Positions 24,018 to 39,518 of a stretch of DNA of 56,334 nt are shown piece after piece; positions within the stretch are counted from its first letter, which is position 1; the number at the start of each line of letters is the position of its first letter. This DNA is from Anaerolineae bacterium (lineage in GTDB: Bacteria; Chloroflexota; Anaerolineae; B4-G1; SLSP01). Under the pieces are notes generated by a model that worked only from the letters and a program-made list of their open reading frames with translations, did not search any database and had not been told where the DNA came from. A program made the position numbers and the translations under genes. The stretch lies in the NCBI GenBank assembly GCA_025454475.1, contig JALOOJ010000004.1, positions 1 through 56,334 on the forward strand. The letters run 5' to 3'.

Positions 24018-25190
24018 CTACGCCAGCGCCTTGATCCGGGCCATCGCCTCGCGAATCCGCTCAGTGGGTGCAGTAGCCGAGATTCGAACGTACCCGGCTC
24101 CGGAGGGTCCGAAGAATGCCCCAGGCGCCACCGCGACGCCGGCCTGCTCCAACCACAGGCGCGCCAGGCTCGTTGCGCTCTCGCCGCCACCGAGCGCCTC
24201 AGGCACTGACGCCCACAGGTACAACGCTGCCTTCGGCAAGGAGGCATCAAACCCGACCTCCCGCAACCCATCGACCAGGATCTGTAGTCGCTCCCGGTAG
24301 GTCGCGTTTCGCGCCTCAATCCAGGCGGGCCCGGTCGCGAGCGCGCAGATCGCCGCCTCCTGCAGCGGATGGAACAACCCGGAGTCGACGTTCGACTTCA
24401 CCTGGGCCAGAGCCGCGATCGCGTCTCGGTTGCCCACCGCCATCCCAATCCGCCACCCCGCCATGTTGTACGTCTTCGACAGCGAGTTGAACTCTATCGC
24501 GACGTCTATCGCTCCGTCAACAGCAAGGATGCTGGGAGCAACGTAACCATCATACGCCACATCACAATAGGGTGCGTCGTAGGCGATCAGGATCCCGTGG
24601 TCGCGACCAAACTCCACGGCCTGCGTCAGGAAACCGAGGTCAGCCACCCCACCCGTGGGGTTGTTCGGATAGTTCAGCCACATCAACTTGGCCTTGTCCG
24701 CGGCAACCCGGGGTATCGCGTCGAGCACAGGCAGGAAGCTGTGTTCGGCAAGCAGCGGAAAAGTGACCACTTCCGCGCCGGCCAACATCGCACCCATGGC
24801 ATAGGGTGCATAGCCGGGGTCCGGCGCGAGCACCACGTCGCCGTTGTCCAGACACGCCAGCGCCAGATTGACGATGCCTTCTTTCGAACCGATCAAGGGC
24901 AACACCTCTGCATCGGGGTCCAGCGCTACTCCGAAGCGACGGGCATAGTAGTCGGCCATCGCACGGCGGAGAGTCGCCAACCCGCGATATCCCCCATAGC
25001 CGTGGTGAGCGGACTCCTGCGCAGATGCACACAGCGCTGCAACAACCGGTTCGGGAGGCGCCATGTCGGGGTTGCCGATATCCAGGCGGATCACATCGAC
25101 ACCACGACGCTCGACTTGGGCCACCTGGGCGGACCACAGTGCGAAGGGATAGGGCGGTAGTGTCGCCAGCCGCTCAGCTTTCAAGATCAT
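24018..25190 (-). CDS. Class I/II PLP-dependent aminotransferase, last gene of the aromatic operon
   Basis: 390 aa, fold type I. Visible: [23 protein letters not shown], the NYPNNPTGG substrate loop, [10 protein letters not shown], and [16 protein letters not shown] with the PLP lysine. The GSKEGI motif makes it look like the LL-diaminopimelate aminotransferase/aspartate aminotransferase branch by sequence. Its place as the last gene, overlapping aroQ by 17 bases, suggests it transaminates prephenate-derived keto acids (phenylpyruvate and 4-hydroxyphenylpyruvate) to Phe and Tyr, the only step otherwise missing from the operon. A lysine-pathway role is the alternative. Confidence 0.85.
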
Positions 25191-25716
25191 TGGTTTCTCC
25201 CCCGGCGCGGCGGTGTTCTGAAGCCAAGGGGTCCGGTTCTGACCGGCCCTGACGGGCGTTCTCTGACGCGCGCTCGCGGATCACGTCCAACAGCGCGGTT
25301 AGGCCCAGCTGATAGCTACGCCACCCGAACCCGCTGATCTGCCCCACGCAAACCGGCGCGATCATCGACGTATGGCGAAAGGCTTCACGCGCGTGCACGT
25401 TCGACAGATGCACCTCAACAGCCGGCAGCCCAATGCCCGCTACGGCATCGCGCAACGCTACGCTCGTGTGCGTATACCCGCCGGGGTTGATCACCACGCC
25501 GTCTGCCCAATCCATCGCCCCCTGGAGAGCGTCGATCAGCGCACCCTCGCCGTTTGATTGAACGATGCGCAACTCGGCGCTGCAGTCCGTGGCGATCTCA
25601 CGAAGGCGCCGGTCGATCTCGCCAAGCGTGACCTTGCCGTATGTCTCCGGTTCCCGACGCCCCAGAAGGTTCAGGTTAGGTCCATGCAAGATCAGGATCC
25701 GAATAGGTCTCACCAC
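25174..25716 (-). CDS. aroQ: Type II 3-dehydroquinate dehydratase with repeat-encoded tail
   Basis: Dehydrates 3-dehydroquinate to 3-dehydroshikimate (third shikimate step). 180 aa; the enzyme proper is about the first 145 residues: [19 protein letters not shown] with the catalytic Tyr, [24 protein letters not shown], and [16 protein letters not shown] with the catalytic His. Family members end at about 145-150 residues. The extra 30 or so ([20 protein letters not shown] onward) are encoded by copy B of the dispersed hairpin repeat, so the tail looks acquired. It starts at GTG 25716 behind AAGGAGG; a second GTG follows directly. Stop overlaps the aminotransferase start. Confidence 0.93.
25215..25270 (+). 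repeat. Dispersed hairpin repeat, copy B (composite)
   Basis: GTTCTGAAGCCAAGG, then CCGGT-TCTG-ACCGG (25233-25246, perfect) and GCGT-TCTCTG-ACGC (25256-25269). It forms the 3' end of aroQ; three Ser-Glu dipeptides result on the coding strand. Confidence 0.8.
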
Positions 25717-25745: not shown

Positions 25746-27338
25746 TCAGGCCGGGCTATGCGCACCCATCCCAATCAGTACGTCACTCACCAGAGTCTCG
25801 GGTACATCGTCGGCGAGCTCAACGCACCCAATCGCCCTAGGCAACACCCAGCGCAGACGCCTTCCCTGGCGCTTCTTGTCGTGGCGCATCGCGCGCAGGA
25901 CCTCACCCACATACCAGGGAGGGCAGCTTGTCGGTAACCCCGCTGAAGCAAGAACGCCTGACACGCGATCACCCAGGCCGGCCTCGGCTCGCCCCATCAT
26001 CTCGGAGATCCGGGAGGCCGCGACCATACCAATCGCTACAGCGTCTCCGTGGCGCATAGCATATCGGCTGAGCATCTCGATGGCGTGACCAACGGTGTGC
26101 CCGAGGTTCAACACCGCACGTCGTCCGTTCTCAAGAGGGTCCTCTTGGACGATGTCGATCTTGACCTGGATCGAGCGCGCCATGATCTGAGGTGTGATCA
26201 CCGGCGCACCTGTCGCAGCCAGATCGGCCAGCTCCTCGAACAAGGCGGGATCGCCGATCACGCCGTGCTTGATCACCTCGGCCAGGCCTGAGCGCAACTC
26301 GTCTCCTGGCAGCGTCGCTAGGACGGCCAGATCGATGAAGACGAGCTCCGGCTGCTTGAACACCCCGACCAGGTTCTTGCCCTGGGGAAGGTCGACGCCC
26401 GTCTTCGCACCGACGCTCGCATCGGTCATCGCCAGCAGTGATGTAGGCACCTGCACCAAGCGCACTCCCCGCATGTAGGTCGCCGCCGCAAAGCCCACAA
26501 CATCCCCGGTCACACCGCCCCCCAGGGCTAGCACGGTGTCGTGGCGATCGAGGTCGGCCTGTAACAGCGCATCATAGAGCGCGCGCACCGTCTCTAGTGT
26601 CTTGTGCGTCTCCCCATCGGGGATAACACACGGGATCGGCGTAAGCCCACCCGCCTCTAGCGAGTCGGAGACGGCACCCGCCCACAGCGGCGCGACGACA
26701 TCATTGGACACGACCACAACCCGCGAACCCTCGCCGATACCCGCCGCACGCATCACACCGCCGAGGTACCTGAGCGTGCCGCTCCCAATGTGAATGTCAT
26801 ATGTCCCTGTGGGATGGGCCACGGGCAGCGAGTGCACCGCAGCCAGCGCTGCAACCTCTGCGACAACGTCCGCAAGCGCTCGGTCGGTCGTGTCTATCTG
26901 CCACGGGATCGCGGCATAGGCCTCGCGGCGACCAGATAGTAGGTGCTCGATATCGGCGCGCAGATCCTCGACGCCCAACAGAGGTCGGCCTGCCCCACCG
27001 TGCACGCGGTCAACGAGCGCTGAGGTGCTTGCCCCGAGACAAACGAGGGTAGATGCCGCGGAGAGAGCCGCCCGGCTGTCGGGATCGACCAGAGCTCCCC
27101 CCCCTGTGGCGATGACCGTGCTGCGCCGTGCGCCAAGCTCCCGACATAGCGCCGCCTCTAGCTCCCGGAACGCTGGTTCGCCATCCTCGGAGAAGATGCG
27201 CGAGATCGACTTCCCGGCGCGGGCCTCGATCACCTCATCCATATCGATGAATGGCCACCCGAGGTGCTGTGCGACTGCCCGTCCGACGCTGGTCTTCCCA
27301 ACTCCCATGAATCCCGCAAGCACCAGGTTTCTGTTCAT
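25746..27338 (-). CDS. aroKB: Bifunctional shikimate kinase / 3-dehydroquinate synthase
   Basis: 530 aa fusion. Residues about 1-170 are shikimate kinase: P-loop GFMGVGKTS (about 8-16), DMDE, FRELE, GGGALVDP and GRPLL. Residues about 180-530 are dehydroquinate synthase: IPDGETHKT, the NAD-binding LALGGGVTGDVVGFAA, TSLLAMTDASVGAKTGVDLP, and zinc ligands in EVIKHG and LNLGHTVGHAIE. It thus performs the second and fifth steps of the pathway. ATG 27338 overlaps the aroC stop as ATGA, so translation is coupled; a longer open frame to 27455 lies inside aroC and is rejected. No sign of decay in either half. Confidence 0.95.
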   Translation of the reverse strand: MNRNLVLAGFMGVGKTSVGRAVAQHLGWPFIDMDEVIEARAGKSISRIFSEDGEPAFRELEAALCRELGARRSTVIATGGGALVDPDSRAALSAASTLVCLGASTSALVDRVHGGAGRPLLGVEDLRADIEHLLSGRREAYAAIPWQIDTTDRALADVVAEVAALAAVHSLPVAHPTGTYDIHIGSGTLRYLGGVMRAAGIGEGSRVVVVSNDVVAPLWAGAVSDSLEAGGLTPIPCVIPDGETHKTLETVRALYDALLQADLDRHDTVLALGGGVTGDVVGFAAATYMRGVRLVQVPTSLLAMTDASVGAKTGVDLPQGKNLVGVFKQPELVFIDLAVLATLPGDELRSGLAEVIKHGVIGDPALFEELADLAATGAPVITPQIMARSIQVKIDIVQEDPLENGRRAVLNLGHTVGHAIEMLSRYAMRHGDAVAIGMVAASRISEMMGRAEAGLGDRVSGVLASAGLPTSCPPWYVGEVLRAMRHDKKRQGRRLRWVLPRAIGCVELADDVPETLVSDVLIGMGAHSPA

Positions 27339-28591
27339 CTGAAGAGCACGAAGTTCTTTGTGTCCAGGGCTGTCGCCTGATGCGCCAGCACCGCGTTCAG
27401 CAGCTCGATGGACATCCGGCTCTCCAGCGTGATGCCCGCCCGAATACCGGCGCATGGGTCATGACGTCCCTCATGCATCACAAAGCGGACCTCGCTCAGG
27501 TCCTTTCGCACCGACGCCTGCGGCAGGAGGATCGAGGAGGTCGGCTTGAAGCCGACGCGGCAGACCAGGGGCATCCCGGTCGTGATACCCCCCAGTAACC
27601 CACCTTGGTGATTAGTCTGGAATCCTGAGCTACGGATCGCGTCGTTGTTCTCGCTTCCTCGGCGGCTGACAACGGCAAACCCATCGCCCACCTCGCACGA
27701 CTGCGCCGCGTTGAGCCCTCCCAAGGCCCCCATCAGCCGCAGCTTCAGGCTCTGGTAGAGCGGCGTCCCCGCAAGGGGAGGCACGTTGACAGCAATAACC
27801 TCAACACACGATCCCAAAGAATCCCCTTCGCCCCGAATACGCTCGATCACAGTCGCGGCTCGCTCGGCGAAATCATGATCGACGCTGGGTATAGCCGCCT
27901 CTGTGAGTCTGGTCTCGATCGCCCGAAGCGCAGCCAGGGGCACGGGCTCTGCCTGCGTATGGTCCGCCACCAGCTCATGCACCTCGTCTGCCAGGCTGCG
28001 CGACGCCCGCAGATCCCCTACCTGAATCACCGACGAGAGAATCACAGTCTGGAAGTGCGTCTCAAGGAAGATTCTTGCGATCGCGCCTCCGATCACATCC
28101 GAGATAGTAGCCCGATAGCTCGACCGCCCGCCGCCCCGCGGGTCATTCGTGCCTCGCGACTGATAGTGCTTGACCAGATCCGCATGCCCAGGCCGCGCCT
28201 CTCCTTGCGGACCTGCGAACTGAGCGTAGTCCCGAGACTGGGTTGCCGACGAGATGACGAGCGCGGCAATGGGCTCACCTGTCGTCGAGCCTTCTTGGTA
28301 CGTGCGTGCTCGATAGGCTTTTTCCGCCACTACTGCCACCGCCTCCGGCCCAGCCAGCAAGACATCCGGATCATCGTCGTACAGCCCCGAGAGTAGGAGT
28401 ACCTGATCTGCCTCACTCCTCGGGGTACCATGTCGACTCCCGCCGGGCCGCCGCCGGTCCAAGTACCGCTGGATCTCACTGCGCCTCAGGCGCAGCCCCG
28501 GCGGGCAACCGAACACGATGGTCGTGTAGGCCGGCCCGTGCGACTCACCGGCGCCCGCGACGCCGAAAAGCGGTCCCCCCAGAATCTCCAT
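27335..28591 (-). CDS. aroC: Chorismate synthase
   Basis: Converts EPSP to chorismate with reduced FMN as cofactor. 418 aa, at the long end of the family. Signatures: AGESHGPAYTTIVFG at the N-terminus, RPGHADLVKHYQ, DPRGGGRSSYRAT, GDSLGSCVEV, GFAVVSRRGSENND and the C-terminal VRFVMHEGRHDP. All conserved His, Arg and Ser motifs are present. ATG 28591 has AGGGG close upstream. The stop shares ATGA with aroKB. It follows tyrS after 50 bases. Confidence 0.95.
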   Translation of the reverse strand: MEILGGPLFGVAGAGESHGPAYTTIVFGCPPGLRLRRSEIQRYLDRRRPGGSRHGTPRSEADQVLLLSGLYDDDPDVLLAGPEAVAVVAEKAYRARTYQEGSTTGEPIAALVISSATQSRDYAQFAGPQGEARPGHADLVKHYQSRGTNDPRGGGRSSYRATISDVIGGAIARIFLETHFQTVILSSVIQVGDLRASRSLADEVHELVADHTQAEPVPLAALRAIETRLTEAAIPSVDHDFAERAATVIERIRGEGDSLGSCVEVIAVNVPPLAGTPLYQSLKLRLMGALGGLNAAQSCEVGDGFAVVSRRGSENNDAIRSSGFQTNHQGGLLGGITTGMPLVCRVGFKPTSSILLPQASVRKDLSEVRFVMHEGRHDPCAGIRAGITLESRMSIELLNAVLAHQATALDTKNFVLFR

Positions 28592-28641: not shown

Positions 28642-29925
28642 CTACTCGACCAACCGCAACAGGTGGTACTGCTTCTTGCCCTTCCTGAGCACGATGAACT
28701 GGCCATCCGTTGCATCCTGGAGCGCTACCGCACGGGCCGGATCAGTGACCTGGATGTTGTTAATGTAGACGCCGCCGTTGCTCAACAACCGTCGCGCCTC
28801 TCCCTTCGAGCGAGCCAGCCCTGCCTCCTCGAAGAGGTCGATTAGGGCCGAACCGTTTCCCTCGAACCGTGATCTAGGCACATCACTGGAAGGCACATCG
28901 GAGAAGATATCGGCGATCTCGCTTGCGTCCAGCCCCGCAATCTCCCCTCCAAACAGGACTTGTGAGGCTTGTTCGGCCTTTGCCAGCGCGGTCTCACCGT
29001 GCGTAAGACGCGTGACCTCTTGAGCCAAGGCGCGTTGGGCGTCCCTGCGCTCCGGGTGCGCCTCCAGCTTTTGCTCCAGATCAACGATGGCTTCCTGGTC
29101 CAGCCAGGTGAAGTACTTCAGGAAACTGATGACAACATCATCGCCCTGGTTCAGCCAGAACTGGTAGTAGCGAAAGGGCGATGTCTTGGCGGCATCCAGC
29201 CAGATCGCTCCCCGTACGGTCTTGCCAAGTTTGACGCCCTCGGTGTCGGTCGCCAGCGGATAGACAAGGCCGTAGGCCCGCGCGTCCCGCGTGCGCCGAA
29301 TCAACTCCACGCCCGCTGTGATATTGCCCCACTGATCGCTGCCGCCGGCCTGCAACGTGCAGCCATAGCGGTCAAAGAGCTGCTGGAAGTCGTAGGCCTG
29401 GAGCAGCATGTAGCTGAACTCGGCGTAGGAGATTCCCTCCTCGCGCTGCAGCCGCGTCTTGACGGAGTCCTTCGAGGTCATATAGCTGACTGTGAAGTGC
29501 TTACCGACGTCGCGCAGAAACGCCATCATCGGTACGTTCAGTAGCCAGTCGGCGTTGTTCACCAGCCTCGCAGGATTTCCTCTGACCTCGAAGTCGAGGT
29601 ATCGAGCTAGCTGAAGCTTAATCGCCTCGACGTTCGCCTGCACCTGGTCGATGCTCATGAGCTGGCGTTCGCTCGTCTTGCCGCCCGGATCGCCGATCAT
29701 GCCGGTGCCCCCTCCCGCAAGGGCGATGGGGCTGTGGCCAAAGCGCTGCATCCGGGCTAGCCCCATCAGCGCCAGCAGATTGCCCACCTGCAAGCTATCA
29801 GCCGTTGGGTCGAAACCAATGTAGACCGTAACCTTCTCGGCTACGAGCGCATCGGATAGGCCCTCAGTGCTGTCGTAGACCAATCCGCGCCAACAGAACT
29901 CATCAAAAGCGCTCTGTGCTGCCAT
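28642..29925 (-). CDS. tyrS: Tyrosyl-tRNA synthetase
   Basis: 427 aa class I synthetase, bacterial type. The HIGH-equivalent is in [14 protein letters not shown]; tyrosine-binding residues lie in YMLLQAYDF and [12 protein letters not shown]; the KMSKS-equivalent is KLGKT (after DTEGV). An S4 RNA-binding domain closes the protein ([18 protein letters not shown]). ATG 29925 follows AAGGAGG at four bases; a longer frame to 29985 is rejected. Its place in the middle of the Phe/Tyr biosynthesis operon links tRNA-Tyr charging to supply: the same leader that senses charged tRNA-Tyr/Phe would control this enzyme. No separate promoter is visible. Confidence 0.96.
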
Positions 29926-29977
29926 ATCTCCTCCTTGTGCAGACACGTGAACCGGGCGGAAAGGGAGATGGGAAGCA

Positions 29978-30928
29978 CTATGCATCCCGGCCCCACCACA
30001 CCTCGGCCCCCGTACGCATCTGTGCCGTGATCAGTTCAGTGTCAAGCGGCTCGCCAAGCCACAGCTCCAGGGCCAACGCCCCTTGGCGTGCAAGCATCCC
30101 AAGCCCATCGATCGCCTTCGCGCCGGATCGACGCGCCTGAGCCAACAGCCGCGTCTCCAGCGGGTTGTAGACCAAGTCATAGACCGTAAGCCGTGCAGGA
30201 AGCGGCACGGCCTCGGGCCAGATCGACGCGTCAGAACGGGGCCACATACCAACGGTCGTGGCGTTGACTAACAGGTCAGCCGCAGGCACCGTAGCCAGCA
30301 ACGTGCGCTCGTCCAGCCCCAGCGCTCGCACGCGGTCAATCGCAACGCCCGCTGCGAGCAGATCCGACACAAGCCCCTCGGCCCGCTCGCGGCTCCGATT
30401 CAGTACGATAACCGCACCGACAGCCGTTGTCAACAGTGCATAGACGACCGCCCGCGCGGCCCCTCCGGCGCCCAGGACTACAGCGCACTCGGCTGAAGCC
30501 GGCTCGAAGCCACCCGCGCGAAGCGAGCCGAGAAAGCCCTGCACATCCGTATTGTGCCCGCGCATCGTCGGAACCCCTCGCTGGTCCTGCGTGACGACGA
30601 TCGTGTTCACGGCACCTACCACCGCAGCCGCGGGTGTGATCTCATCCAGCGACGCCATCACCGCGCGCTTGTGTGGCACTGTGACGTTGGCCCCACGGAA
30701 TCCAAGCGCCGCTATCCCGCGCAACGCCTCATCCACTGCGCCAGGCCGCACGGGGAGAGGAACGTAGCACCAGTCCAGGCCCAGCGCACGCAGGACCGCA
30801 TTGTGCATCGCGGGCGACAGGCTGTGAGCCACGGGCCAGCCGATTACGCCGACAAGCTGAGTCTCGCCCGTGATTGCGGGCGCTGCTCCATGCCCTGATG
30901 CTCCCGTATTCCTCTCAGTCCCGCTCAT
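29978..30928 (-). CDS. aroE: Shikimate dehydrogenase
   Basis: NADPH-dependent reduction of 3-dehydroshikimate. 316 aa; a non-conserved 22-residue N-terminus precedes [18 protein letters not shown], the shikimate-binding start. Catalytic Lys in NVTVPHK, Asp in GHNTDVQGF, the dinucleotide-binding [23 protein letters not shown] for the NADP phosphate, and NATTVGMWP follow. ATG 30928 overlaps the end of aroA by 14 bases; a later start within this N-terminus cannot be excluded. Confidence 0.94.
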
Positions 30929-32318
30929 CGATCGCGGCGCCTAGTCTGCGCATCGTCCCAACAAACCCGGGGAAGGAATCAGCTATGCGCTCTGCGCCCA
31001 ACACAGTCGTCTCGCCTTTCGCGACTAGTCCCGCAATCGCCAGGGCCATTCCGAGCCGGTGGTCCCCGTGGCTGTCGACCACCGCCCCCCGCAGCGATGT
31101 CGGCCCCTCGACGACGAAACCGTCCGTCCGCGGCTCGATGGAAGCACCAAGCTTGCGCAACTCGTCAACCACCGATCCGATGCGATCTGACTCCTTGACT
31201 CGCAGTTCCGCGGCATCTCGGATGAGCGTTGCGCCCGAGGCCTGTGTGGCAATGACCGCTAGAATCGGGAACTCGTCGATCATGCGCACCACCGTGTCGC
31301 CCTCCACAACCGCCGCGCCGAGTGAGGATGCCCGTACAGTGATGTCCGCCACCGGCTCACCACTCTGCTCGCGGGGGTTACTCAGAGCCACGTCAGCCCC
31401 CATCGACCACAACACATCCAGAAGACCGGTACGCGTTGCGTTGACGCCGGCGCCGGTCACCGTGAGCTCGGAACCGGGTATGCACAGCCCAGCCGCGACG
31501 ATGAAAGCCGCTGAGGAAAAGTCTCCCGGGACCACACACGACAATGGCCTCAGGTACGCGATCGCAGACGGGTCCAGCCTGGCGGTCACGGCATCGTATG
31601 TCAGAAACCGCTGACTCGAATGCCGCGGTTCAGACTGCGCTGCAAGCATGCGCTCTGTGTGATCGCGGGCGGGACCAGGAAGCAGGATCTCCGTTGGCCC
31701 GTCCGCGTAGAGACCGGCCAGCAGGATCATGCTTTTCACCTGCGCGCTCGCGACGGGAAGCACGTGCGCAAGGCCGCGCAAGGGGCTTTGGCCCTGGATG
31801 CAGAGCGGTCCGTGACCATCGGTGTCCGAGATTGCTGCGCCCATCTGTCGGAGTGGATCGGTGACCCGCCGCATAGGCCGCCGCAAGAGCTGTGGTTCAC
31901 CCGAAAGCACACTGCCAAACGCTTGCCCCACTAGAATGCCCGCCAACAACCGCATCGTAGTGCCCGAGCGGCTGCAGTTGAGCGGTCCCTGAGGAGGCTT
32001 TAGCCCGTGGAGCCCGCAGCCCTGAATCTGCAGGACGGTGCCCACGGTCCCGGCCTCGCCCCTGCGGACCGCTGGTGGTATCGGGTCTTCAGGCTCCCCG
32101 TCCGTCAGGTTGGCGCTGACACCTAAGTCACGCATACACGCCAACGTGGCAAGGCAATCACCGGACTGCAGGAAACCCTCGACGCGCGAGGTCCCCTCCG
32201 CAAGGGCAGCCAGCATCAACGCGCGGTGCGAGATCGACTTATCGCCGGGAACCATCACCGACCCCTGCAGAGCGCCTGATGCTCCCGCGGCGCATCCGTG
32301 GATCTTAAGCAAGCTCAT
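30915..32318 (-). CDS. aroA: 5-enolpyruvylshikimate-3-phosphate synthase
   Basis: Sixth shikimate step, joining PEP to shikimate-3-phosphate. 467 aa, about 35 longer than usual. Motifs: VPGDKSISHRALML, SGTTMRLLAGIL, RPMRRVTDPLRQMGA, ASAQVKSMILLAGL, RDHTERML, VPGDFSSAAFIVAAG, DEFPILAVIA, LRVKESDRI and SHGDHRLGMALAIA. Two stretches do not fit the family: a Gly/Pro/Arg-rich run after residue about 72 (GEPEDPIPPAVRRGEAG) and QSEPRHSSQRF directly after RDHTERML; the latter coincides with a diverged hairpin module (31625-31638). Both lie in surface loops, so activity is probably kept. The stop overlaps aroE; its start overlaps tyrA as ATGA. Confidence 0.94.
   Translation of the reverse strand: MSLLKIHGCAAGASGALQGSVMVPGDKSISHRALMLAALAEGTSRVEGFLQSGDCLATLACMRDLGVSANLTDGEPEDPIPPAVRRGEAGTVGTVLQIQGCGLHGLKPPQGPLNCSRSGTTMRLLAGILVGQAFGSVLSGEPQLLRRPMRRVTDPLRQMGAAISDTDGHGPLCIQGQSPLRGLAHVLPVASAQVKSMILLAGLYADGPTEILLPGPARDHTERMLAAQSEPRHSSQRFLTYDAVTARLDPSAIAYLRPLSCVVPGDFSSAAFIVAAGLCIPGSELTVTGAGVNATRTGLLDVLWSMGADVALSNPREQSGEPVADITVRASSLGAAVVEGDTVVRMIDEFPILAVIATQASGATLIRDAAELRVKESDRIGSVVDELRKLGASIEPRTDGFVVEGPTSLRGAVVDSHGDHRLGMALAIAGLVAKGETTVLGAERIADSFPGFVGTMRRLGAAIDERD
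31625..31638 (+). repeat. Possible degenerate TTCYGA hairpin module (copy J)
   Basis: GCGGT-TCAG-ACTGC inside aroA pairs over five positions with one G-T wobble but has TCAG in the loop instead of TCYG. It coincides with an off-family Ser-Glu-Pro insertion in the protein. Confidence 0.4.
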
Positions 32319-33175
32319 GGGTACATCTCCTTCCGTATTCGCTGGATTCTGGACAGTTCTGCGCCCAGGCGTGTTTCATCGCCTTCCTCGACCAACTGGA
32401 TCAGTTGGTCGAGCTGGTCGGCGCAGAGACGGGCCGCCTTCACGATCTCGCCGCGGTTTGTCATCAGGATATCCAGCATCATCGTCACATCGCTTCCCGC
32501 GACGCGTGAGGTATCGCGAAAGCCACCCGCTGGGATGTGCCAGACCAAGGGATCCGCCGAGGTGGTTACGTCTGCAGTGCTCACCAGCGAGCAGGCTAGG
32601 AGATACGGCAGATGGCTCAGCGTGCCTACCAGAAAGTCCTGCCGCTCGGCGCCAATGACTAAGGGCATCGCACCAACAGCCTTCGCCAACGATGCTCCCA
32701 ACTCTAGCGCTTCAGGCGAGGTTCGCGGTAACGGTGAGAGGATAAACGTCCGCTCCCGAAACAGGGCTATGTCCGCCGCCGCGATACCCGAGGTCTCTTT
32801 GCCACACATCGGATGCCCACCCAACGGCTGGATAGTGTCGGGCAGGTGCGCCATCGCTTTCAGGATCTGCGTCTTGGTACTTCCAAGGTCCATAAGCAGG
32901 GCCTCGGCATGTACCAATGGGCCAAGCTCGCCGAGAAGCCGCACGATGGTACGGACAGGCGTGGCCAGTACCACGATATCGGCCCCTGCGACGCCCTCGG
33001 CAAGGTCCACCGTGCCCCGGTCGGCGAATCGTCCCCGCACGGCCGCTTCCACGATGGCGGTATCGCGATCAACGCCGATTACCTCCTTGCAGTGACCACG
33101 AAGGGCACCCGCCAGCGAGCCGCCCATCAGACCCAGGCCGATGACCGTTACCGTGCAGTCTGACAGCGGTTGCAT
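32315..33175 (-). CDS. tyrA: Prephenate dehydrogenase
   Basis: 286 aa. NAD(P)-binding GLGLMGGSLAGAL at the N-terminus, then the VVLATPV strand, LMDLGSTK, and the HPMCGKETSGI motif with the catalytic His; SHLPYLLA and GGFRDTSRVAGSD complete the helical dimerisation domain. It oxidatively decarboxylates prephenate to 4-hydroxyphenylpyruvate, the tyrosine branch. No ACT domain is fused, so feedback control must act elsewhere (DAHP synthase, or the leader). It shares ATGA with aroA at its stop and lies 3 bases after aroF. Confidence 0.94.
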   Translation of the reverse strand: MQPLSDCTVTVIGLGLMGGSLAGALRGHCKEVIGVDRDTAIVEAAVRGRFADRGTVDLAEGVAGADIVVLATPVRTIVRLLGELGPLVHAEALLMDLGSTKTQILKAMAHLPDTIQPLGGHPMCGKETSGIAAADIALFRERTFILSPLPRTSPEALELGASLAKAVGAMPLVIGAERQDFLVGTLSHLPYLLACSLVSTADVTTSADPLVWHIPAGGFRDTSRVAGSDVTMMLDILMTNRGEIVKAARLCADQLDQLIQLVEEGDETRLGAELSRIQRIRKEMYP

Positions 33176-33178
33176 AGG

Positions 33179-34192
33179 CTAGAGCGTACGCCCCACGGCT
33201 GACGCAATGGAACGCAGCGACTCCATCAGTTCCGCAAAGCGCGCTGGTTTTAGCGACTGCGCGCCGTCGGACCACGCTTCCTCGGGCCTGGGGTGGACCT
33301 CGATAATCAAGCCGTCCGCGCCTGCCGCAACAGCAGCACGCGATGCAGCCCCCACCAACTCCCAATGCCCCGTCCCATGGCTCGGGTCAACCAACACAGG
33401 CAGGTGGCTCAACTGCTTGAGCAGCGGCACTGCGCTAATATCCAGCGTGTTCCGCGTGTATGTCTCGAACGTGCGGATACCGCGCTCACAGAGGATCACC
33501 CGGCTGTTCCCGTGCGACAGGATGTATTCTGCCGACATAAGCAGCTCCTCAATCGTTGACATCATTCCCCGCTTGAGCAGGACCGGTCGCTGAGCCTCGC
33601 CCACCGCGTGCAACAGTGCGTAGTTCTGCATGCTGCGCGCCCCTACCTGCAGGATGTCGGCATAGGTCGACACAAGGGGTACCTGCTCGGGCGACATGAC
33701 CTCCGTCACGATGGGAAGCCCGGTCGCCTCACGTGCCTCAGCCAGAAGTCGCAGACCTTGCTCGCCCATTCCCTGAAAGCTGTAGGGCGATGTTCGTGGT
33801 TTGTACGCGCCTCCACGTAGAGCGTGCGCTCCCGCAGCCTTCACCGCTTGTGCCGTCTCCATCAGCTGCGCAGCCCCTTCCACGGTACAGGGTCCGGCCA
33901 TCACAATCACCTGGTTGCCCCCGATCGACACCCCATTGATAGGAAACACAGTGTCCTGAGGGTGAAACTCGCGACTCGCCAGCTTAAATGGCCTCAACAC
34001 CGGCACCGTTCGCTCCACGCCCGACATCCGCTCAATCTGCTCACGATCGATTGGCCGACCGTTTCCGATGACGCCAATGATCGTGCGCTCCTGACCCTCA
34101 GATAGGTGCACCTGACATCCCATCTGTTCGACGCGCGCCGACACGTTTGCGATCTGCGACGTCGTCGCCCCATGTTCCATGATGATGATCAT
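33179..34192 (-). CDS. aroF: 3-deoxy-7-phosphoheptulonate synthase (DAHP synthase, type I beta)
   Basis: First committed step: PEP plus erythrose-4-phosphate to DAHP. 337 aa. An N-terminal ferredoxin-like regulatory domain (about 1-70, [14 protein letters not shown] onward) precedes the TIM barrel, as in the Thermotoga-type enzymes in which Tyr or Phe binds this domain to inhibit. Barrel motifs: [54 protein letters not shown] and VDPSHGTGH, supplying metal and PEP ligands. AGGAG lies five bases upstream of ATG 34192. Feedback inhibition is inferred from the domain, not shown. Confidence 0.95.
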
Positions 34193-34237: not shown

Positions 34238-35095
34238 CTAAACCGGGTCGCCAAAGGTCGGAAGATCCTCCGATACCGGCGTAGTTGCTGCTGGATACGA
34301 CCCAAGGAGCTTGACAAAAGAGGCGTGACGCAACAGCCCCATCAAAGCCGCCTCAGATACCAGATCCTGGCAGTGCCCCTCGAAGTCCAGATAGAACGTG
34401 TAGCGCCAGGGCTGGTTGAGCCGCGGGCGTGACTCGATCTTCGTCAGGTTGATGTTGCGCGTCGAGAACTCCCCTATGCACTTGTAGAGCGCACCGGGAC
34501 TGTGCCGCGTGGAGAACACGATCGAAGTCTTGGTGCGTTGTGCCCGTGGCGGATCATCGGTCCCCATCACGAAGAACCGCGTATAGTTGAAGCGAAAGTC
34601 CTCGATACCACGATCAAGGATATCCAACCCGTACATCTCAGCTGCGAGCCCACTGGCGATTACGGCTACGTCCGGCTCAGGTGCTACAGCAAGATCCCGG
34701 GCGCTTCCAGCCGTGTCAAACGCTGGCTCGGCCTGCATACCGTAGCGGTCAAGGTAGCGTTGGCACTGCGCCAGCGCTTGCGGATGGGACCGAACGCGGC
34801 GCACACCGCTGCGCTGCGTACCAGGCGCTGCCAGCAGCATATGACGGACGCGCAGAATCACCTCGGCATTGATGCGCAGATCTCGCTCCAACAATAACTC
34901 ATAGGCGCCGGTTACCGCCCCCGCCACGGCATTCTCCACCGGCAGCATCGCGAAATCGGCTCGACCCGACTCCACTTCGGGGAAGATGTCATCTAGGGTC
35001 GGACAGGCACGGGTCTCCACACCGACTCCAAAGTACTGTCGCACTGCCTCCTCGGAGTAGGCTCCCGCCACCCCCTGGAATGCAACCCGAGTCAC
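34238..35095 (-). CDS. pheA: Prephenate dehydratase
   Basis: 285 aa, converts prephenate to phenylpyruvate. The PDT domain starts VAFQGVAGAYSEEA and has LPVENAVAGAV and the catalytic NYTRFFVMG. A C-terminal ACT domain carries GALYKCIGEF and the Phe-binding ESRPRLNQPWRY, so allosteric inhibition by Phe is expected. The start is GTG 35095: it overlaps the aroH stop as GTGA and has GGAGGTG upstream. A longer frame to 35275 only reads aroH out of frame. No chorismate mutase domain is fused; AroH is separate. Confidence 0.95.
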   Translation of the reverse strand: MTRVAFQGVAGAYSEEAVRQYFGVGVETRACPTLDDIFPEVESGRADFAMLPVENAVAGAVTGAYELLLERDLRINAEVILRVRHMLLAAPGTQRSGVRRVRSHPQALAQCQRYLDRYGMQAEPAFDTAGSARDLAVAPEPDVAVIASGLAAEMYGLDILDRGIEDFRFNYTRFFVMGTDDPPRAQRTKTSIVFSTRHSPGALYKCIGEFSTRNINLTKIESRPRLNQPWRYTFYLDFEGHCQDLVSEAALMGLLRHASFVKLLGSYPAATTPVSEDLPTFGDPV

Positions 35096-35493
35096 GAGGT
35101 CACCTCCGTGTTCCGATGCGCTACTGGGTTCCGACCCACCAAGTCCGGCCGCAGCCGCTGCGCCTCCCGCAGGTAGATATGGATCACCTCTGAAGGCGCC
35201 TTGTCCGTGTTCCAGCTCAGAAGCACCCGGATGCAGTACGGCAGGCTCCCGACGACCCGCATCTCCTGCAGACACAGGAGCGGCGTCTGGCCCCAGCCCA
35301 TCTCCCGAGCCACGACCGCCGGATAGGCGGTATCCAGATCCGACGTCGCCGTGAAGATAACGCTCGCGATGTCCTCGACCGCGATACCGTTTTCCTCAAC
35401 CATCGCCATCAGTAACTCACGAGTCGCTCGGTGAATCTCCTCTGCCGCATTCACCTCTACCGTCGTCGCTCCCCTGACCCCTCGGCACGCCAC
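35092..35493 (-). CDS. aroH: Chorismate mutase, AroH type
   Basis: 133 aa, trimeric pseudo-alpha/beta-barrel type as in Bacillus AroH. RGVRGATTVEVN, the EIHRATRELL helix, FTATSDLDTAYPA, CLQEMRVVGSLPYCIRVLL and the YLREAQRLRPDL end match the family, including the active-site Arg and Glu. It rearranges chorismate to prephenate. First structural gene after the leader. GTG 35493 is preceded by AGGAGG at seven bases. The last 15 residues contain copy G of the hairpin repeat, inserted between RPDL and the NTE that normally ends the protein. Confidence 0.93.
   Translation of the reverse strand: MACRGVRGATTVEVNAAEEIHRATRELLMAMVEENGIAVEDIASVIFTATSDLDTAYPAVVAREMGWGQTPLLCLQEMRVVGSLPYCIRVLLSWNTDKAPSEVIHIYLREAQRLRPDLVGRNPVAHRNTEVTS
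35125..35138 (+). repeat. Dispersed hairpin repeat, copy G
   Basis: TGGGT-TCCG-ACCCA, perfect 5-bp arms, in the 3' end of aroH. A second TTCCGA (35111-35116) without matched arms lies next to it. Confidence 0.7.
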
Positions 35494-35516: not shown

Positions 35517-35551
35517 AAAAAAGACGTGGAGCCGGTCGGCTCCACGTCTTT
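35517..35551 (-). terminator. Attenuator terminator of the aromatic operon
   Basis: On the minus strand AAAGACGTGGAGCC (35551-35538), loop GACC, GGCTCCACGTCTTT (35537-35520 region), a perfect 14-bp stem, then more T. It lies between the leader peptide and aroH. Segment GCCGACC (35540-35534) in its upper stem and loop is complementary to GGTCGGC (35609-35603) in the leader, giving a competing antiterminator. Confidence 0.9.
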
Positions 35552-35578
35552 GGTTGTCTTGGGACTTCTGAGACTACA

Positions 35579-35674
35579 CTACCCTCCGGGCAACGCAAAG
35601 CGGCCGACCCCTGTGGGGCGGCTAAAATAGAAGGTATACATGTAGGCTTGCGCAGACTCCAGACTGTGTTTCAT
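35579..35674 (-). CDS. Phe/Tyr attenuation leader peptide
   Basis: 31 codons from ATG 35674 to TAG 35579, starting MKHSLESAQAYMYTFYF. Codons 11-17 (35644-35624) hold three Tyr and two Phe; another Phe is at 26. GAGG lies seven bases before the ATG. Directly behind the Tyr/Phe run a hairpin (GCCGCCCC/GGGG-T-CGGC, 35622-35603) can form, and the 14-bp terminator follows. A ribosome stalled for lack of Tyr- or Phe-tRNA would cover the first arm, free GGTCGGC and open the terminator; a ribosome that reaches the stop lets it form. The peptide itself probably has no function. Too short to judge by homology; the call rests on codon content and RNA geometry. Confidence 0.85.
   Translation of the reverse strand: MKHSLESAQAYMYTFYFSRPTGVGRFALPGG
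35603..35622 (-). promoter_or_regulatory. Pause/anti-antiterminator hairpin of the leader
   Basis: Minus strand GCCG CCCC, loop ACA, GGGG T CGGC: eight base pairs with one bulged T, directly after the Tyr/Phe control codons. Confidence 0.7.
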
Positions 35675-35709
35675 CTGCCTACCTCGGGTTACACGATCGA
35701 TTGCTCACC

Positions 35710-35737
35710 ATACTAATCACTTCTAGACACTTGTCAA
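35710..35737 (-). promoter_or_regulatory. Promoter of the aromatic amino acid operon
   Basis: On the minus strand TTGACA (35737-35732), 16-base spacer, TAGTAT (35715-35710). Transcription would start near 35703, about 30 bases before the leader peptide. Confidence 0.75.
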
Positions 35738-35881: not shown

Positions 35882-36274
35882 TCAGCCCGCGATCCGTTGC
35901 AGCGCCTCTAGCGCTGAGGCCAGCGCATCGCCCATCGTCCGCAGCATCGTCTCGCGCGTCTGCAAGGCCTGGCTGACCATCGATTGGTGCATGTCCCAGA
36001 CCGAGCGATCGATCTGGTCGTTCGCATCTACAGGCAGACAGACGGTCGTGTCGCAGTCAAAGTCGATCTTTGTATAGGCGCGCAGCCGCAATTTGTCCGC
36101 CATTGCCTGATCTGCCAGATCTAGCTCGCCGCCTGCGAGCAGGGAGATCTGCGTACTGGGCATGCTGAAGGTTCGGACCTCAAGCGTGGTGACATCGCTG
36201 ACAAATGACTCGGCCTTGTTCGCCAGATCCTTGGTGAACTTCTCGATCGCGTACCTAAGCTCACTTTCACTCAT
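35882..36274 (-). CDS. Small helical protein related to the C-terminal domain of the adjacent peptidase
   Basis: 130 aa, last gene of the cassette. No known family recognised. It aligns over nearly its full length with the last 115 residues of the peptidase encoded at 37136-39457: an FT-x2-LA start, a T-LEV(R/K)T(F/Y)S segment against ITLDVKTYSTK, an RAYTKIDFDCD region against RALTRVAFDGD, and SVWDMHQSMVSQA against LALWEIHRSMVEEA. So it is a stand-alone version of that domain. The pattern is a beta-rich core flanked by helices. ATG 36274 is preceded by GGAGG; the open frame upstream to 36376 overlaps the previous gene. Role unknown; a shared partner-binding module or inhibitor is conceivable. 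Confidence 0.65.
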   Translation of the reverse strand: MSESELRYAIEKFTKDLANKAESFVSDVTTLEVRTFSMPSTQISLLAGGELDLADQAMADKLRLRAYTKIDFDCDTTVCLPVDANDQIDRSVWDMHQSMVSQALQTRETMLRTMGDALASALEALQRIAG

Positions 36275-36320
36275 CCCTATTCCTCCCGTAGTGAATGCCC
36301 TGTAGCGCTGTGCCTCGTGA

Positions 36321-37136
36321 TCAGGAACCGGAACCTGGTCCAGCATTCCAGGCGTATCCCGCCTCAACTGTGCCAAGCCGTCCGGTTCTGACCGGCTCTG
36401 ACGGTCTCTGTCGCTCCAGTTCCTTGAGAATGCTCCGAACGTAGTTATAGACTGCCGGAAGGAGCAGAACCTGCCCCCCAGGCACTGATGCCTTCAGTGT
36501 CAGGCTCAGGGCCCCCGACGTCACTACGCTGATCAGACGTAGCAGTGCGTGTCGAGACTCAAGCGCCAACCTGACCGCTTCCAGGTGCAACCCCATATCA
36601 GATGCAGTAGCGCCATCCAGCCACACCGTTTCGTAGTCACCTGTCCAGTCGACCGCAGTTAGCGCCACGCTCACGCCGCGAGTGGCAGTCTCGATCCGGG
36701 CAAAGTGATGGATCAGCCGCTTGAACTGCAGCAACAGGGCATTCGCCTGCTCGTAGACCTCGTGATACGCGGCCGTCGCAGCCTCGCCAAGGCCATACGA
36801 CAGCACGGGGCTCTGCAACGCCGCGATCTGAGCCAACAGCTCGGCCTCAGGGGCTCCAAATCCCAGGGCATAGGACGTCACAGGGCTAAGATCTGCCAGT
36901 CGCCGCGCCGCGGCGTCGAGGCTGTACTCCCACTGTTCCACTTTGGCGCGCTGCGCGAGCAGCGCCGTTTCGGCCTCCCGCGATGACGTCGGGTGGTCGA
37001 CACGCCAGATCAAACCGCGGTCATCACTCCCCGCCGCGTACGGCACGACCGGGGAGATAACCAGATCCCAAATGCCCAAGGGATCGAGTTCCTCGGGCGT
37101 GCTGAAGCCGGAGAACGTGAACGTCGAGGCGGCCAT
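36321..37136 (-). CDS. Uncharacterised protein of the peptidase cassette
   Basis: 271 aa, family not recognised. Residues about 55-150 are rich in Ala, Leu, Glu and Gln and look helical or coiled. A middle segment has GVSVALTAVDWTGDYETVWL, followed by long helices and SLTLKASVPGGQVLLLP. No signal peptide or clear membrane helix. The C-terminal 25 residues (RPSEPVRTGRLGT) come from copy C of the dispersed hairpin repeat. Its ATG overlaps the stop of the upstream peptidase by one base (TGATG), so the two are translationally coupled. I checked for gasdermin-like features because of the neighbours and saw none I could defend. Confidence 0.6.
   Translation of the reverse strand: MAASTFTFSGFSTPEELDPLGIWDLVISPVVPYAAGSDDRGLIWRVDHPTSSREAETALLAQRAKVEQWEYSLDAAARRLADLSPVTSYALGFGAPEAELLAQIAALQSPVLSYGLGEAATAAYHEVYEQANALLLQFKRLIHHFARIETATRGVSVALTAVDWTGDYETVWLDGATASDMGLHLEAVRLALESRHALLRLISVVTSGALSLTLKASVPGGQVLLLPAVYNYVRSILKELERQRPSEPVRTGRLGTVEAGYAWNAGPGSGS
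36371..36404 (+). repeat. Dispersed hairpin repeat, copy C (composite)
   Basis: GCCAAGCCGT, then CCGGT-TCTG-ACCGG (36382-36395, perfect) and CTCTGACGG. CCGTC (36378-36382) can also pair with GACGG (36400-36404). Forms the 3' end of the 271-aa protein gene. Confidence 0.8.
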
Positions 37137-39457
37137 CAGGAACCGATCTGCAAGCTATCCAGAAGCCTGGTTGCCAGCTCGGCCATCGTGGCGAGGAACC
37201 GTGCCCGGCTATGCTGTGCTTCCTCGACCATCGACCTATGGATCTCCCAAAGCGCCAGGTCGACGTTACCCGACTGACGGTCCCCAGCGCTGGTCTCTGG
37301 CACGTAGACCTGCAGATCGCCATCGAAAGCGACCCGCGTAAGCGCTCGCAGGTTCGCATCCACCTCGTTGCGCGCATCCAGCGCCGCGGCGACCGCCGCG
37401 ATATCCTTCGTGGAGTACGTCTTCACGTCCAGTGTTATGATGTCCTGCGCCGCACGGCCCAGGCTTGTCGCCAACTGATCGGTAAACGAGCGTAGTGAGT
37501 CCCGCAAGCGGTTGAACTGATCTCCAAGCCCAAAGGCAACGGCGGCATCGGCATCCAGGACGGCTACACGGGTGGCGGGCTCAGTCGCCAGTCTCTCGTG
37601 ACCATGCGGTCTGAGCGCCGCCCCAGCCCACGGCCTGGGCATCGGCTGCCCCCGTAATGGTGTCGATGGTCCGGCTGCCGCCTGCGACGCCGCAAACTGC
37701 ACTGTCCCAACGCCGGCTTTCGCGCTATCCTCAGTGGGCGCCGGTTCCTCGGGTTCCTGAATCTCGGGCTCCGGCACTTGCGGCGGTTCTGACCGCGGTT
37801 CTGACCGCGTGATCGTACCAACATCCTCTCGTTGCTTGGGCTCCGCCGCTTCCTGCACCAGAGTGAACCTTGCGGCGGGGTCGCCAAGCACGACGTAGCT
37901 ACGCGCATCGTTGTTCGCGGTCCAGCGGTGGGCCAGCTCATAGTCATCGAGGTGACTTGGATCCCACCGCAACTCCTCAAGATCCGCGCTCAAGTCAGAG
38001 CTCATCTCAGCATACCGCATGTTGAAGCTAGCATCGGTCGCCAGCCCAACGGGACCGCCGTTCATCAGCGTGCGCATCGCCGTGATGAATGATTGATGCT
38101 CTAGCTGCCCGCTTGGCGAGATGAAAGAATAGCCCCAGGCGCGCTCGACATGCCCCAGCACAGCCAGCGCACCATGCGCAAGTAGCTGCTGAGGCAACGC
38201 TGCAGTGAAGGCCTGTGGGGCGATCTTCTCGCGCACCTTGAATGCCTGGGCCGCGAACTGATCCAGCTCCGGCGTACCCGCGCCGTAGCACGCGAAAAAG
38301 AACGCAATCATGCCCTGCAAGTCAGCGCTATCGGCGATATCCTCACCCGCGAAGTAGTGCTCGCGAGCCACATCTCGACCCTGACCCGGCCAATCCTGGC
38401 AGAGCAGTGCTCCCTGTTGTCGCAACTGGGCAGGGTGCCCCGCCGGGAACTCGAGGCCGTGACATGCAGCAAACAGAAGCGCCGGCGTCTGAGCCGGATC
38501 ACCACCGAGCAGCGCCTCCAGACGGACGCGGGTCGCCAGCTTCTCGCCGACAATGGGCGTACCCACTTCCCAGGGAACGGACAGCGCCAGATCGTTCCCG
38601 ATCGTCTGCTGGGACAGGTTCTCATACAGCGGCTGGACCAGGTACTGCGCGCTCAGTTTTGTCGCCTTGTCGCCGGGATTCATCGGCGCGAAAAATGCCG
38701 CTCGGCGGGGAACGGTTCCCCCATGAGAACGATTCACCTCAGCAGCAACCACGGCGCGCGCATATCGGTCATAAGCGTCAACATCACTCCCGAAATCCAG
38801 GCGACCAACGCCACGCATCACATCGAGCTGGTACTGGAAACCATAGGGGATCTGGGCAGGCGTGCCCACCAAGAGCACATAGAAGGGCATCTCGCGGGGA
38901 TCTACAAGGCCTGGCCCTACCCCAAGACGCTCCAGGAACTGGTCCTTGCGCTCGCCAGGTCGGTAAGCGTCGCCGCCCTCGTAGAGCCGGAAAAACTCGC
39001 CGGCCTGAGTACGCCGCAGATCGAACAGGGGACGTAGCGCCTCTTTGATCTCCTCTCGCAACCTTGGGTGCATTTCCGCTGGGAAGACCGCCGCCCACCC
39101 CACATCCGCGACATTCGCGGGATCGCCTGCACCCGGCTTCACCGGGTATACGCCCCACTCTCTCGCCTTGCGCCGTAATTCATCGCGACGCACCTTGTCC
39201 TCGGTCGCCCGTAGCTCAACCTGTGCGTCGGTCACGCGCGTCAGACGCTCTTCGACCGTGGTGAGACCGGAGAGGAGCCGCTGACGATCCACGAATTCGC
39301 GGTAGTCCTGGGGAAAAGGCTCTCCCCGAATAAGCCGGGCAAGCGTCCGAGGCGACAGGGGCGGCTGTCCGTAGTCACCGGTCACGGCGTTGACGCCGTT
39401 GAACACCAGGTCACTGGTGTAGAGCGCCTCGCTTGTTCCCTTCAGGGCATCGGACAT
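37136..39457 (-). CDS. Caspase/gingipain-fold (C25-like) cysteine peptidase with C-terminal accessory domain
   Basis: 773 aa. N-terminal region (about 1-190) resembles that of the neighbouring peptidase (LVFNGVNAVTGDYG). Peptidase core about 200-580: PFYVLLVGTPAQIPYGFQYQ, then His333 in AACHGLEF and Cys390 in FFFACYGAGTP, the clan CD dyad, and the downstream GHVERAWGYSF and YVVLGDPAARF. An acidic Pro/Glu-rich linker (about 590-640) contains copy E of the hairpin repeat. Residues about 655-770 match the small protein encoded at 35882-36274. No secretion signal, so it probably acts in the cytoplasm. ATG 39457 has AAGGAG at seven bases. The substrate is unknown. Confidence 0.75.
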   Translation of the reverse strand: MSDALKGTSEALYTSDLVFNGVNAVTGDYGQPPLSPRTLARLIRGEPFPQDYREFVDRQRLLSGLTTVEERLTRVTDAQVELRATEDKVRRDELRRKAREWGVYPVKPGAGDPANVADVGWAAVFPAEMHPRLREEIKEALRPLFDLRRTQAGEFFRLYEGGDAYRPGERKDQFLERLGVGPGLVDPREMPFYVLLVGTPAQIPYGFQYQLDVMRGVGRLDFGSDVDAYDRYARAVVAAEVNRSHGGTVPRRAAFFAPMNPGDKATKLSAQYLVQPLYENLSQQTIGNDLALSVPWEVGTPIVGEKLATRVRLEALLGGDPAQTPALLFAACHGLEFPAGHPAQLRQQGALLCQDWPGQGRDVAREHYFAGEDIADSADLQGMIAFFFACYGAGTPELDQFAAQAFKVREKIAPQAFTAALPQQLLAHGALAVLGHVERAWGYSFISPSGQLEHQSFITAMRTLMNGGPVGLATDASFNMRYAEMSSDLSADLEELRWDPSHLDDYELAHRWTANNDARSYVVLGDPAARFTLVQEAAEPKQREDVGTITRSEPRSEPPQVPEPEIQEPEEPAPTEDSAKAGVGTVQFAASQAAAGPSTPLRGQPMPRPWAGAALRPHGHERLATEPATRVAVLDADAAVAFGLGDQFNRLRDSLRSFTDQLATSLGRAAQDIITLDVKTYSTKDIAAVAAALDARNEVDANLRALTRVAFDGDLQVYVPETSAGDRQSGNVDLALWEIHRSMVEEAQHSRARFLATMAELATRLLDSLQIGS
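37783..37808 (+). repeat. Dispersed hairpin repeat, copy E (two modules)
   Basis: GCGGT-TCTG-ACCGC at 37783-37796 and again at 37795-37808, both perfect and sharing GC. In the linker of the second peptidase; coding strand reads Arg-Ser-Glu-Pro twice. Confidence 0.82.
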
Positions 39458-39518
39458 GTCCAGGCTCCTTTCATACGTCCTGAGCGGTACCCAAGGACTC
39501 CCCTTCGGCCAACCATGA

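What the first reader, a model, noticed from the sequence alone, without database searches (positions are those of the whole stretch)
35517..35737. Phe/Tyr transcription attenuator controlling the aromatic operon
Promoter, 31-codon leader ORF with YMYTFYF at codons 11-17, a hairpin directly behind the control codons, a 7-base antiterminator pairing (GGTCGGC 35609-35603 with GCCGACC 35540-35534) and a 14-bp intrinsic terminator before aroH: all classical parts in the right order. The established pheA/trp model predicts readthrough when charged tRNA-Tyr or tRNA-Phe is low. Mixed Tyr and Phe sensing, and its presence in a probable Chloroflexota, seem unusual to me.
Basis: partly seen in the sequence, partly recalled or inferred. 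Interest (0 to 1): 0.82.

Follow-up and report, generated by a model that had tools for sequence, protein, structure and literature searches.

The report
Phe/Tyr-sensing attenuator of aromatic operon
A short decoy gene rich in phenylalanine and tyrosine codons sits in front of an 11-gene operon that makes these amino acids; it very probably lets transcription proceed only when the cell runs short of them, and the same switch recurs across much of the bacterial phylum Chloroflexota, where I found no earlier description of it.

Summary
On the minus strand the window has a promoter, a 31-codon leader ORF (MKHSLESAQAYMYTFYF...), mutually exclusive RNA structures and a 14-bp intrinsic terminator in front of aroH.

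The strongest support is comparative. Of 99 distinct aroH upstream regions, 85 have an aromatic-rich leader ORF followed by an intrinsic terminator. The control run holds both Phe and Tyr in 84 of these 85 (Trp as well in 27), in the leader's own frame. It lies a median 15 nt before an antiterminator strand that is compensatorily matched to its own terminator (0 of 20,000 permutations). Rfam has no such family.

The window's operon carries the whole shikimate pathway, the Phe and Tyr branches, an aminotransferase and the genome's only tyrS. The same genome uses T-boxes for pheS and trpS.

Mechanism: classical ribosome-mediated transcription attenuation. Nothing was tested experimentally; which amino acid matters in vivo is inferred. 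A new member of a known kind, with phylum-wide spread outside the usual hosts.

The parts
35710..35737 (-). sigma-70-type promoter, TTGACA-N16-TAGTAT
   Evidence: TTGACN-N16-19-TANNNT lies upstream of 65 of 85 homologous leaders against 0.75 expected
35579..35674 (-). leader peptide ORF, 31 aa, MKHSLESAQAYMYTFYFSRPTGVGRFALPGG, with GAGGT ribosome-binding site
   Evidence: homologous leaders in relatives
35624..35644 (-). control codons 11-17, Tyr-Met-Tyr-Thr-Phe-Tyr-Phe
   Evidence: aromatic run in 85 leaders, in frame only
35574..35645 (-). protector (1:2-type) hairpin: control codons (35645-35640, 35636-35629) pair with the stop-codon region (35587-35574)
   Evidence: compensatory in the close group (0/20,000 permutations) but not detected in distant members
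35603..35622 (-). small hairpin directly behind the control codons (GCCGCCCC/GGGG-CGGC), holds part of the antiterminator strand
   Evidence: weak swap support in the close group only
35591..35609 (-). antiterminator strand (region 2), GGTCGGCCGCTTTGCGTTG
35535..35549 (-). terminator 5' arm (region 3), partner of either region 2 or the terminator 3' arm
35517..35551 (-). intrinsic terminator, 14-bp stem plus U tract
   Evidence: covariation on both sides in 7 of 14 pairs of the family
35092..35493 (-). aroH, chorismate mutase type I (PF07736), first structural gene
34238..35275 (-). pheA, prephenate dehydratase (PF00800); start codon uncertain
33179..34192 (-). aroF, DAHP synthase (PF00793)
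32315..33175 (-). tyrA, prephenate dehydrogenase (PF02153)
30915..32318 (-). aroA, EPSP synthase (PF00275)
29978..30928 (-). aroE, shikimate dehydrogenase
28642..29985 (-). tyrS, tyrosyl-tRNA synthetase, the only one found in this genome
27335..28591 (-). aroC, chorismate synthase
25746..27455 (-). aroKB, shikimate kinase fused to dehydroquinate synthase
25174..25716 (-). aroQ, type II dehydroquinase
24018..25190 (-). class I/II aminotransferase, last gene of the run

Best explanation
It is a ribosome-mediated transcription attenuator that senses charged tRNA-Phe and tRNA-Tyr. When both are plentiful, the ribosome translating the leader runs through to the stop codon and covers region 2, so the terminator forms and the operon is off. 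When either is short, the ribosome stalls in the Tyr/Phe run, masks the protector strand and leaves region 2 free about 15 nt ahead; region 2 pairs with the terminator's 5' arm and RNA polymerase reads into aroH-pheA-aroF-tyrA-aroA-aroE-tyrS-aroC-aroKB-aroQ-aminotransferase. Shown from sequence: the anatomy, its conservation, frame-specific aromatic codons, compensatory antiterminator and terminator pairing, spacing. Inferred: premature termination, stalling, response to Phe and Tyr in vivo, and transcription of all 11 genes as one unit.
For: Leader with at least 5 F/Y/W in 9 aa in 67 of 80 aroH upstream regions vs 8 of 400 shuffles. 85 of 99 distinct regions have a leader plus terminator. In the runs, aromatic codons number 552 of 765 in frame against 107 and 145 in the other frames; both F and Y in 84 of 85; median 15 nt (IQR 13-19) to region 2. 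Each region 2 pairs with its own terminator arm 3.2 kcal/mol better than expected from the other arms, 0 of 20,000 permutations, also for the 34 divergent arms alone. Terminator covariation 0/500. Folding with a ribosome placed on the leader: region 2:3 pairing 0.74 when stalled at the last aromatic codon, 0.28 with no ribosome, 0.02 at the stop codon; stalled-state pairing of the arm 0.77 vs 0.39 in shuffles. Promoter in 65 of 85 vs 0.75 expected. A model of the element finds it before aroH or aroF in other classes. Pathway match of the downstream genes.
Against: No transcript data. In the window alone the antiterminator is not above chance, and the no-ribosome state still gives 0.63 region 2:3 pairing. 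The protector hairpin is not supported in distant members. About one in seven aroH upstream regions lacks a recognisable leader plus terminator.
Confidence: 0.93

Rival explanations
1. The attenuator answers mainly to one amino acid (Phe or Tyr); the other codons only pad the run.
For: In Corynebacterium glutamicum the AroR leader has Phe-Tyr-Phe but responds to Phe only (PMC11802643). Phe UUU is strongly preferred in the runs over the genes of the same loci (193:56 vs 457:652).
Against: Both residues occur in 84 of 85 runs, Tyr is the most enriched residue (28-fold), neither is fixed at the positions nearest region 2, and the operon carries pheA, tyrA and tyrS.
Confidence: 0.25
2. The leader peptide stalls the ribosome by its own sequence (arrest peptide) or by binding free amino acid, rather than by slow decoding.
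For: The conserved signal is at the peptide level, which an arrest peptide would also show.
Against: Composition is conserved, not order or position: runs such as YMYTFYF, WFAYYYFYF, FYFAYYYFF, YYYYYY. The residues are those whose synthesis the operon performs.
Confidence: 0.05
3. A T-box or metabolite riboswitch controls the operon and the small ORF is incidental.
For: T-boxes are common in this genome.
Against: No Rfam match in the window or in eleven homologous loci, T-box included; frame-specific codon conservation.
Confidence: 0.01
4. A plain leader with a constitutive partial terminator and a chance aromatic ORF.
For: Antiterminator not significant in the window alone.
Against: Conservation and compensatory change in relatives.
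Confidence: 0.01

Closest known systems
Corynebacterium glutamicum AroR leader (aroR-aroF), Neshat et al. 2014 as cited in PMC11802643
   Same: Leader peptide with Phe-Tyr-Phe before a DAHP synthase operon; ribosome-mediated attenuation.
   Different: Different phylum; three control codons instead of a longer run; only Phe acts there; here the first gene is usually aroH and the operon holds the whole pathway. Sequence relation not tested.
E. coli pheL-pheA attenuator (and the pheST attenuator)
   Same: Leader with Phe codons, alternative antiterminator/terminator, chorismate-to-Phe gene downstream (PMC11802643; anatomy from general knowledge).
   Different: Phe only; small target; no Rfam leader model matches here. 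In the window's genome pheS is preceded by a T-box instead.
uORFC-13-1 motif upstream of aroF in Acholeplasma (PMC8632094)
   Same: Putative uORF with Phe codon(s) and a terminator before an aromatic gene.
   Different: Reported only from Acholeplasma and unassigned environmental sequences; at least one Phe codon, no Phe/Tyr run described.
E. coli trp attenuator
   Same: Four-region logic: control codons, protector, antiterminator, terminator (general knowledge).
   Different: Trp codons and trp genes; in relatives of this genome trpE is under a T-box.

Membership tests
Ribosome-mediated transcription attenuator (peptide leader) | Short leader ORF with ribosome-binding site, 5' of a biosynthetic operon | tested here: met
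   translation itself not measured
Ribosome-mediated transcription attenuator (peptide leader) | Run of codons for the amino acid(s) made by the operon, conserved in frame | tested here: met
Ribosome-mediated transcription attenuator (peptide leader) | Intrinsic terminator before the first gene | tested here: met
Ribosome-mediated transcription attenuator (peptide leader) | Antiterminator mutually exclusive with the terminator, placed just ahead of a ribosome stalled in the run | tested here: met
   in the window alone not significant
Ribosome-mediated transcription attenuator (peptide leader) | Protector hairpin formed by the control-codon region | tested here: inconclusive
   met in the close group, which includes the window; not detected in distant members
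Ribosome-mediated transcription attenuator (peptide leader) | Readthrough rises when the cognate aminoacyl-tRNA falls | not testable with these tools
   needs transcript data
Rfam amino acid leader families (Phe, Trp, His, Leu, Thr and others) | Match to a covariance model | tested here: not met
   no match at gathering score nor any leader family at E <= 1 in 11 loci
T-box riboswitch | Match to the T-box model (RF00230) | tested here: not met
   T-boxes are present elsewhere in the genome

The most novel reading that the evidence does not exclude
An ancient attenuator class of Chloroflexota, evolved apart from the proteobacterial and actinobacterial leaders, that pools the charging of tRNA-Phe and tRNA-Tyr (and in some lineages tRNA-Trp) into one signal controlling the entire shikimate pathway, beside T-boxes that read single tRNAs in the same cell.
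Probability: 0.5. Interest if true: 0.65.

Novelty: new member of a known kind. Interest (0 to 1): 0.5.

Why it matters
[quoted passage not shown] a phylum-wide peptide-leader attenuator in Chloroflexota argues for a wider or repeated origin. It also gives a natural case where one cell probably reads tRNA-Phe charging in two ways: a T-box on pheS and a leader peptide on the biosynthetic operon. The only tyrS found in this genome lies inside the attenuated operon, so synthetase supply would be tied to tyrosine charging. It is testable in a cultured organism, Chloroflexus aurantiacus.

Tried and rejected
Rfam at gathering and relaxed thresholds: no match to any leader family. Papers naming Chloroflexi or Chloroflexus together with attenuation or attenuator and leader peptide: no relevant hit; the 2010 survey by Lopatovskaya et al., which might cover some of this, is not held, so priority is not proven. 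Trp attenuator in the same genomes: looked for before trpE, found T-boxes instead. Link between Trp codons in the run and trp genes in the operon: no trpE was found in the stretch downstream of aroH in any of 36 named loci. Protector hairpin as a universal part: not supported in distant members. Column-wise covariation of the antiterminator on one alignment was only modest because its core is nearly invariant there; the swap test with divergent arms was used instead. Second copies of the element in this genome: none convincing (the next hit, L210, E 0.01, has no aromatic leader). Plasmids: no similar DNA.

Full report
Observation. The leader RNA folds better than all 200 dinucleotide shuffles (z -4.1). 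The antiterminator is longer than reported: 14 pairs with a 3-nt bulge between 35608-35592 and 35549-35535. Taken alone in this GC-rich sequence it is not significant (p 0.15), so the case rests on comparison.

Conservation. aroH is in 273 of 395 class genomes. I read upstream regions from relatives and further genomes of the class, plus named Chloroflexota records, 99 distinct regions in all. A leader with at least five F/Y/W in nine residues occurs in 67 of 80 aroH upstream regions against 8 of 400 shuffled ones. 85 of 99 have both a leader (here at least four F/Y/W) and a terminator. Named carriers are Anaerolineae, Thermoflexales, Caldilineaceae and Chloroploca. The related aroH genes of Planctomycetota, Bacillota and Tepidiforma lack it.

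The control run. In 84 of 85 leaders the nine-codon run holds both Phe and Tyr; 27 also hold Trp. Because windows were chosen for total F/Y/W, that total and the in-frame count are biased upward, but the mix of Phe and Tyr is not. Aromatic residues number 552 of 765 in frame and 107 and 145 in the other two frames; U-rich codons for other residues are almost absent (UUA 0, AUU 1, CUU 1, UCU 0), so selection appears to act on the amino acid, not on U-richness. Tyr is enriched 28-fold and Phe 9-fold over the rest of the leader. Phe UUU is preferred beyond the usage in downstream genes (193:56 vs 457:652). Why UUU is favoured is not known; slower decoding or lack of structure are possible.

The switch. 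Region 2 starts a median 15 nt after the last aromatic codon (IQR 13-19), about where the front of a ribosome stalled there would end (general knowledge of ribosome footprints). Each leader's region 2 pairs with its own terminator 5' arm 3.2 kcal/mol better than expected from the other arms; none of 20,000 permutations reached this, also not when only the 34 divergent arms were used. Examples of matched change: GGTTGCTTCACG/CGTGGAGCAACC, CCGTCTCCAC/GTGGAGACG, CCCGTCCCACGC/GCGTGGGACGG, GGCGGGGCGC/GCGTCCCGC. Related species share such changes, so they are fewer independent events than rows. The terminator itself covaries (7 pairs changed on both sides, 0 of 500 shuffles).

Folding with a ribosome front placed 11 nt past the A-site codon gives mean region 2:3 pairing of 0.74 when stalled at the last aromatic codon, 0.28 without a ribosome and 0.02 at the stop codon. 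In the window the pairing is above 0.5 for codons 7-20 and zero from codon 22 on. Against shuffled leader interiors the stalled-state pairing of the arm is 0.77 vs 0.39. In the close group (mostly the same order as the window) the control codons also pair with the stop region, a protector with compensatory support (0 of 20,000); this part is not detectable in distant members, where the 'off' state may rest mainly on the ribosome covering region 2.

Spread. A covariance model (R1) finds one strong site in this genome and matches in 47 of 301 genomes of the phylum. Of the 29 located sites other than the window's that I inspected, all lie before aroH or aroF; in one family (f73) the leader precedes aroF with no aroH found between. 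The strict filters lose distant members, so 47 is a lower bound. One carrier is a single 5,258,541-bp contig; that is the published size of Chloroflexus aurantiacus J-10-fl (PMC3150298). Its leader reads MVGSRFYTYFFYFTSRKPDWSLRISWR from the ATG nearest its run; the identification rests on the size alone.

Operon. In the window: aroH, pheA, aroF, tyrA, aroA, aroE, tyrS, aroC, aroKB, aroQ, aminotransferase, all on the minus strand and close-packed. The order is largely conserved in relatives; tyrS sits inside it in L102, L133 and L174 among those checked. It is the only tyrS found in this genome. The genome has five T-box matches; four were looked at and precede trpS, ileS, thrS (named by eye) and pheS, the last with a UUC specifier in the usual place. 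Relatives have T-boxes before trpE.

Known context. Mechanistically this is classical ribosome-mediated attenuation. The nearest described case is Corynebacterium AroR (Phe-Tyr-Phe), which responds to Phe only (PMC11802643); another is a Phe uORF before aroF in Acholeplasma (PMC8632094). A 2013 survey reports T-boxes in Chloroflexi and places peptide leaders mainly in gamma-proteobacteria (PMC3766115). I found no description of this element, but the 2010 attenuation survey by Lopatovskaya et al. could not be read.

Limits. No transcript, stalling or amino acid response was measured. Many genomes are metagenome-assembled. About one in seven upstream regions lacks the element or my detector missed it.

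Noticed in passing
own genome contig C362:22502-22787 (L263:829-1114): A T-box with a UUC (Phe) specifier precedes pheS, so tRNA-Phe charging is probably read by two unrelated RNA mechanisms in the same genome.
   Followed up: partly
L214, L221, L223, L227 upstream of trpE; L242 upstream of trpS: T-boxes precede trpE in relatives and trpS in this genome; no Trp leader-peptide attenuator was seen.
   Followed up: partly
window 35882-41885, minus strand: Four ORFs (164, 271, 852, 788 aa) just upstream of the attenuator have no Pfam match; the two large ones share caspase-like looking motifs (ATHGMEF / AACHGLEF, FLFACFGAGTP / FFFACYGAGTP) by eye.
   Followed up: no
L203-L208 (family f73 genomes): Same attenuator found directly before aroF instead of aroH, suggesting the leader was kept when gene order changed.
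   Followed up: partly
L120 (record labelled Candidatus Neomarinimicrobiota): AroH is 63% identical to the Chloroflexota query and its upstream region has an FGFYYWF leader; possibly a mis-binned Chloroflexota contig or a transfer.
   Followed up: no
85 leaders: Phe UUU codons are strongly preferred in the control runs over the usage in the operon genes.
   Followed up: partly
window 25746-27455: Shikimate kinase and dehydroquinate synthase are fused into one protein.
   Followed up: no
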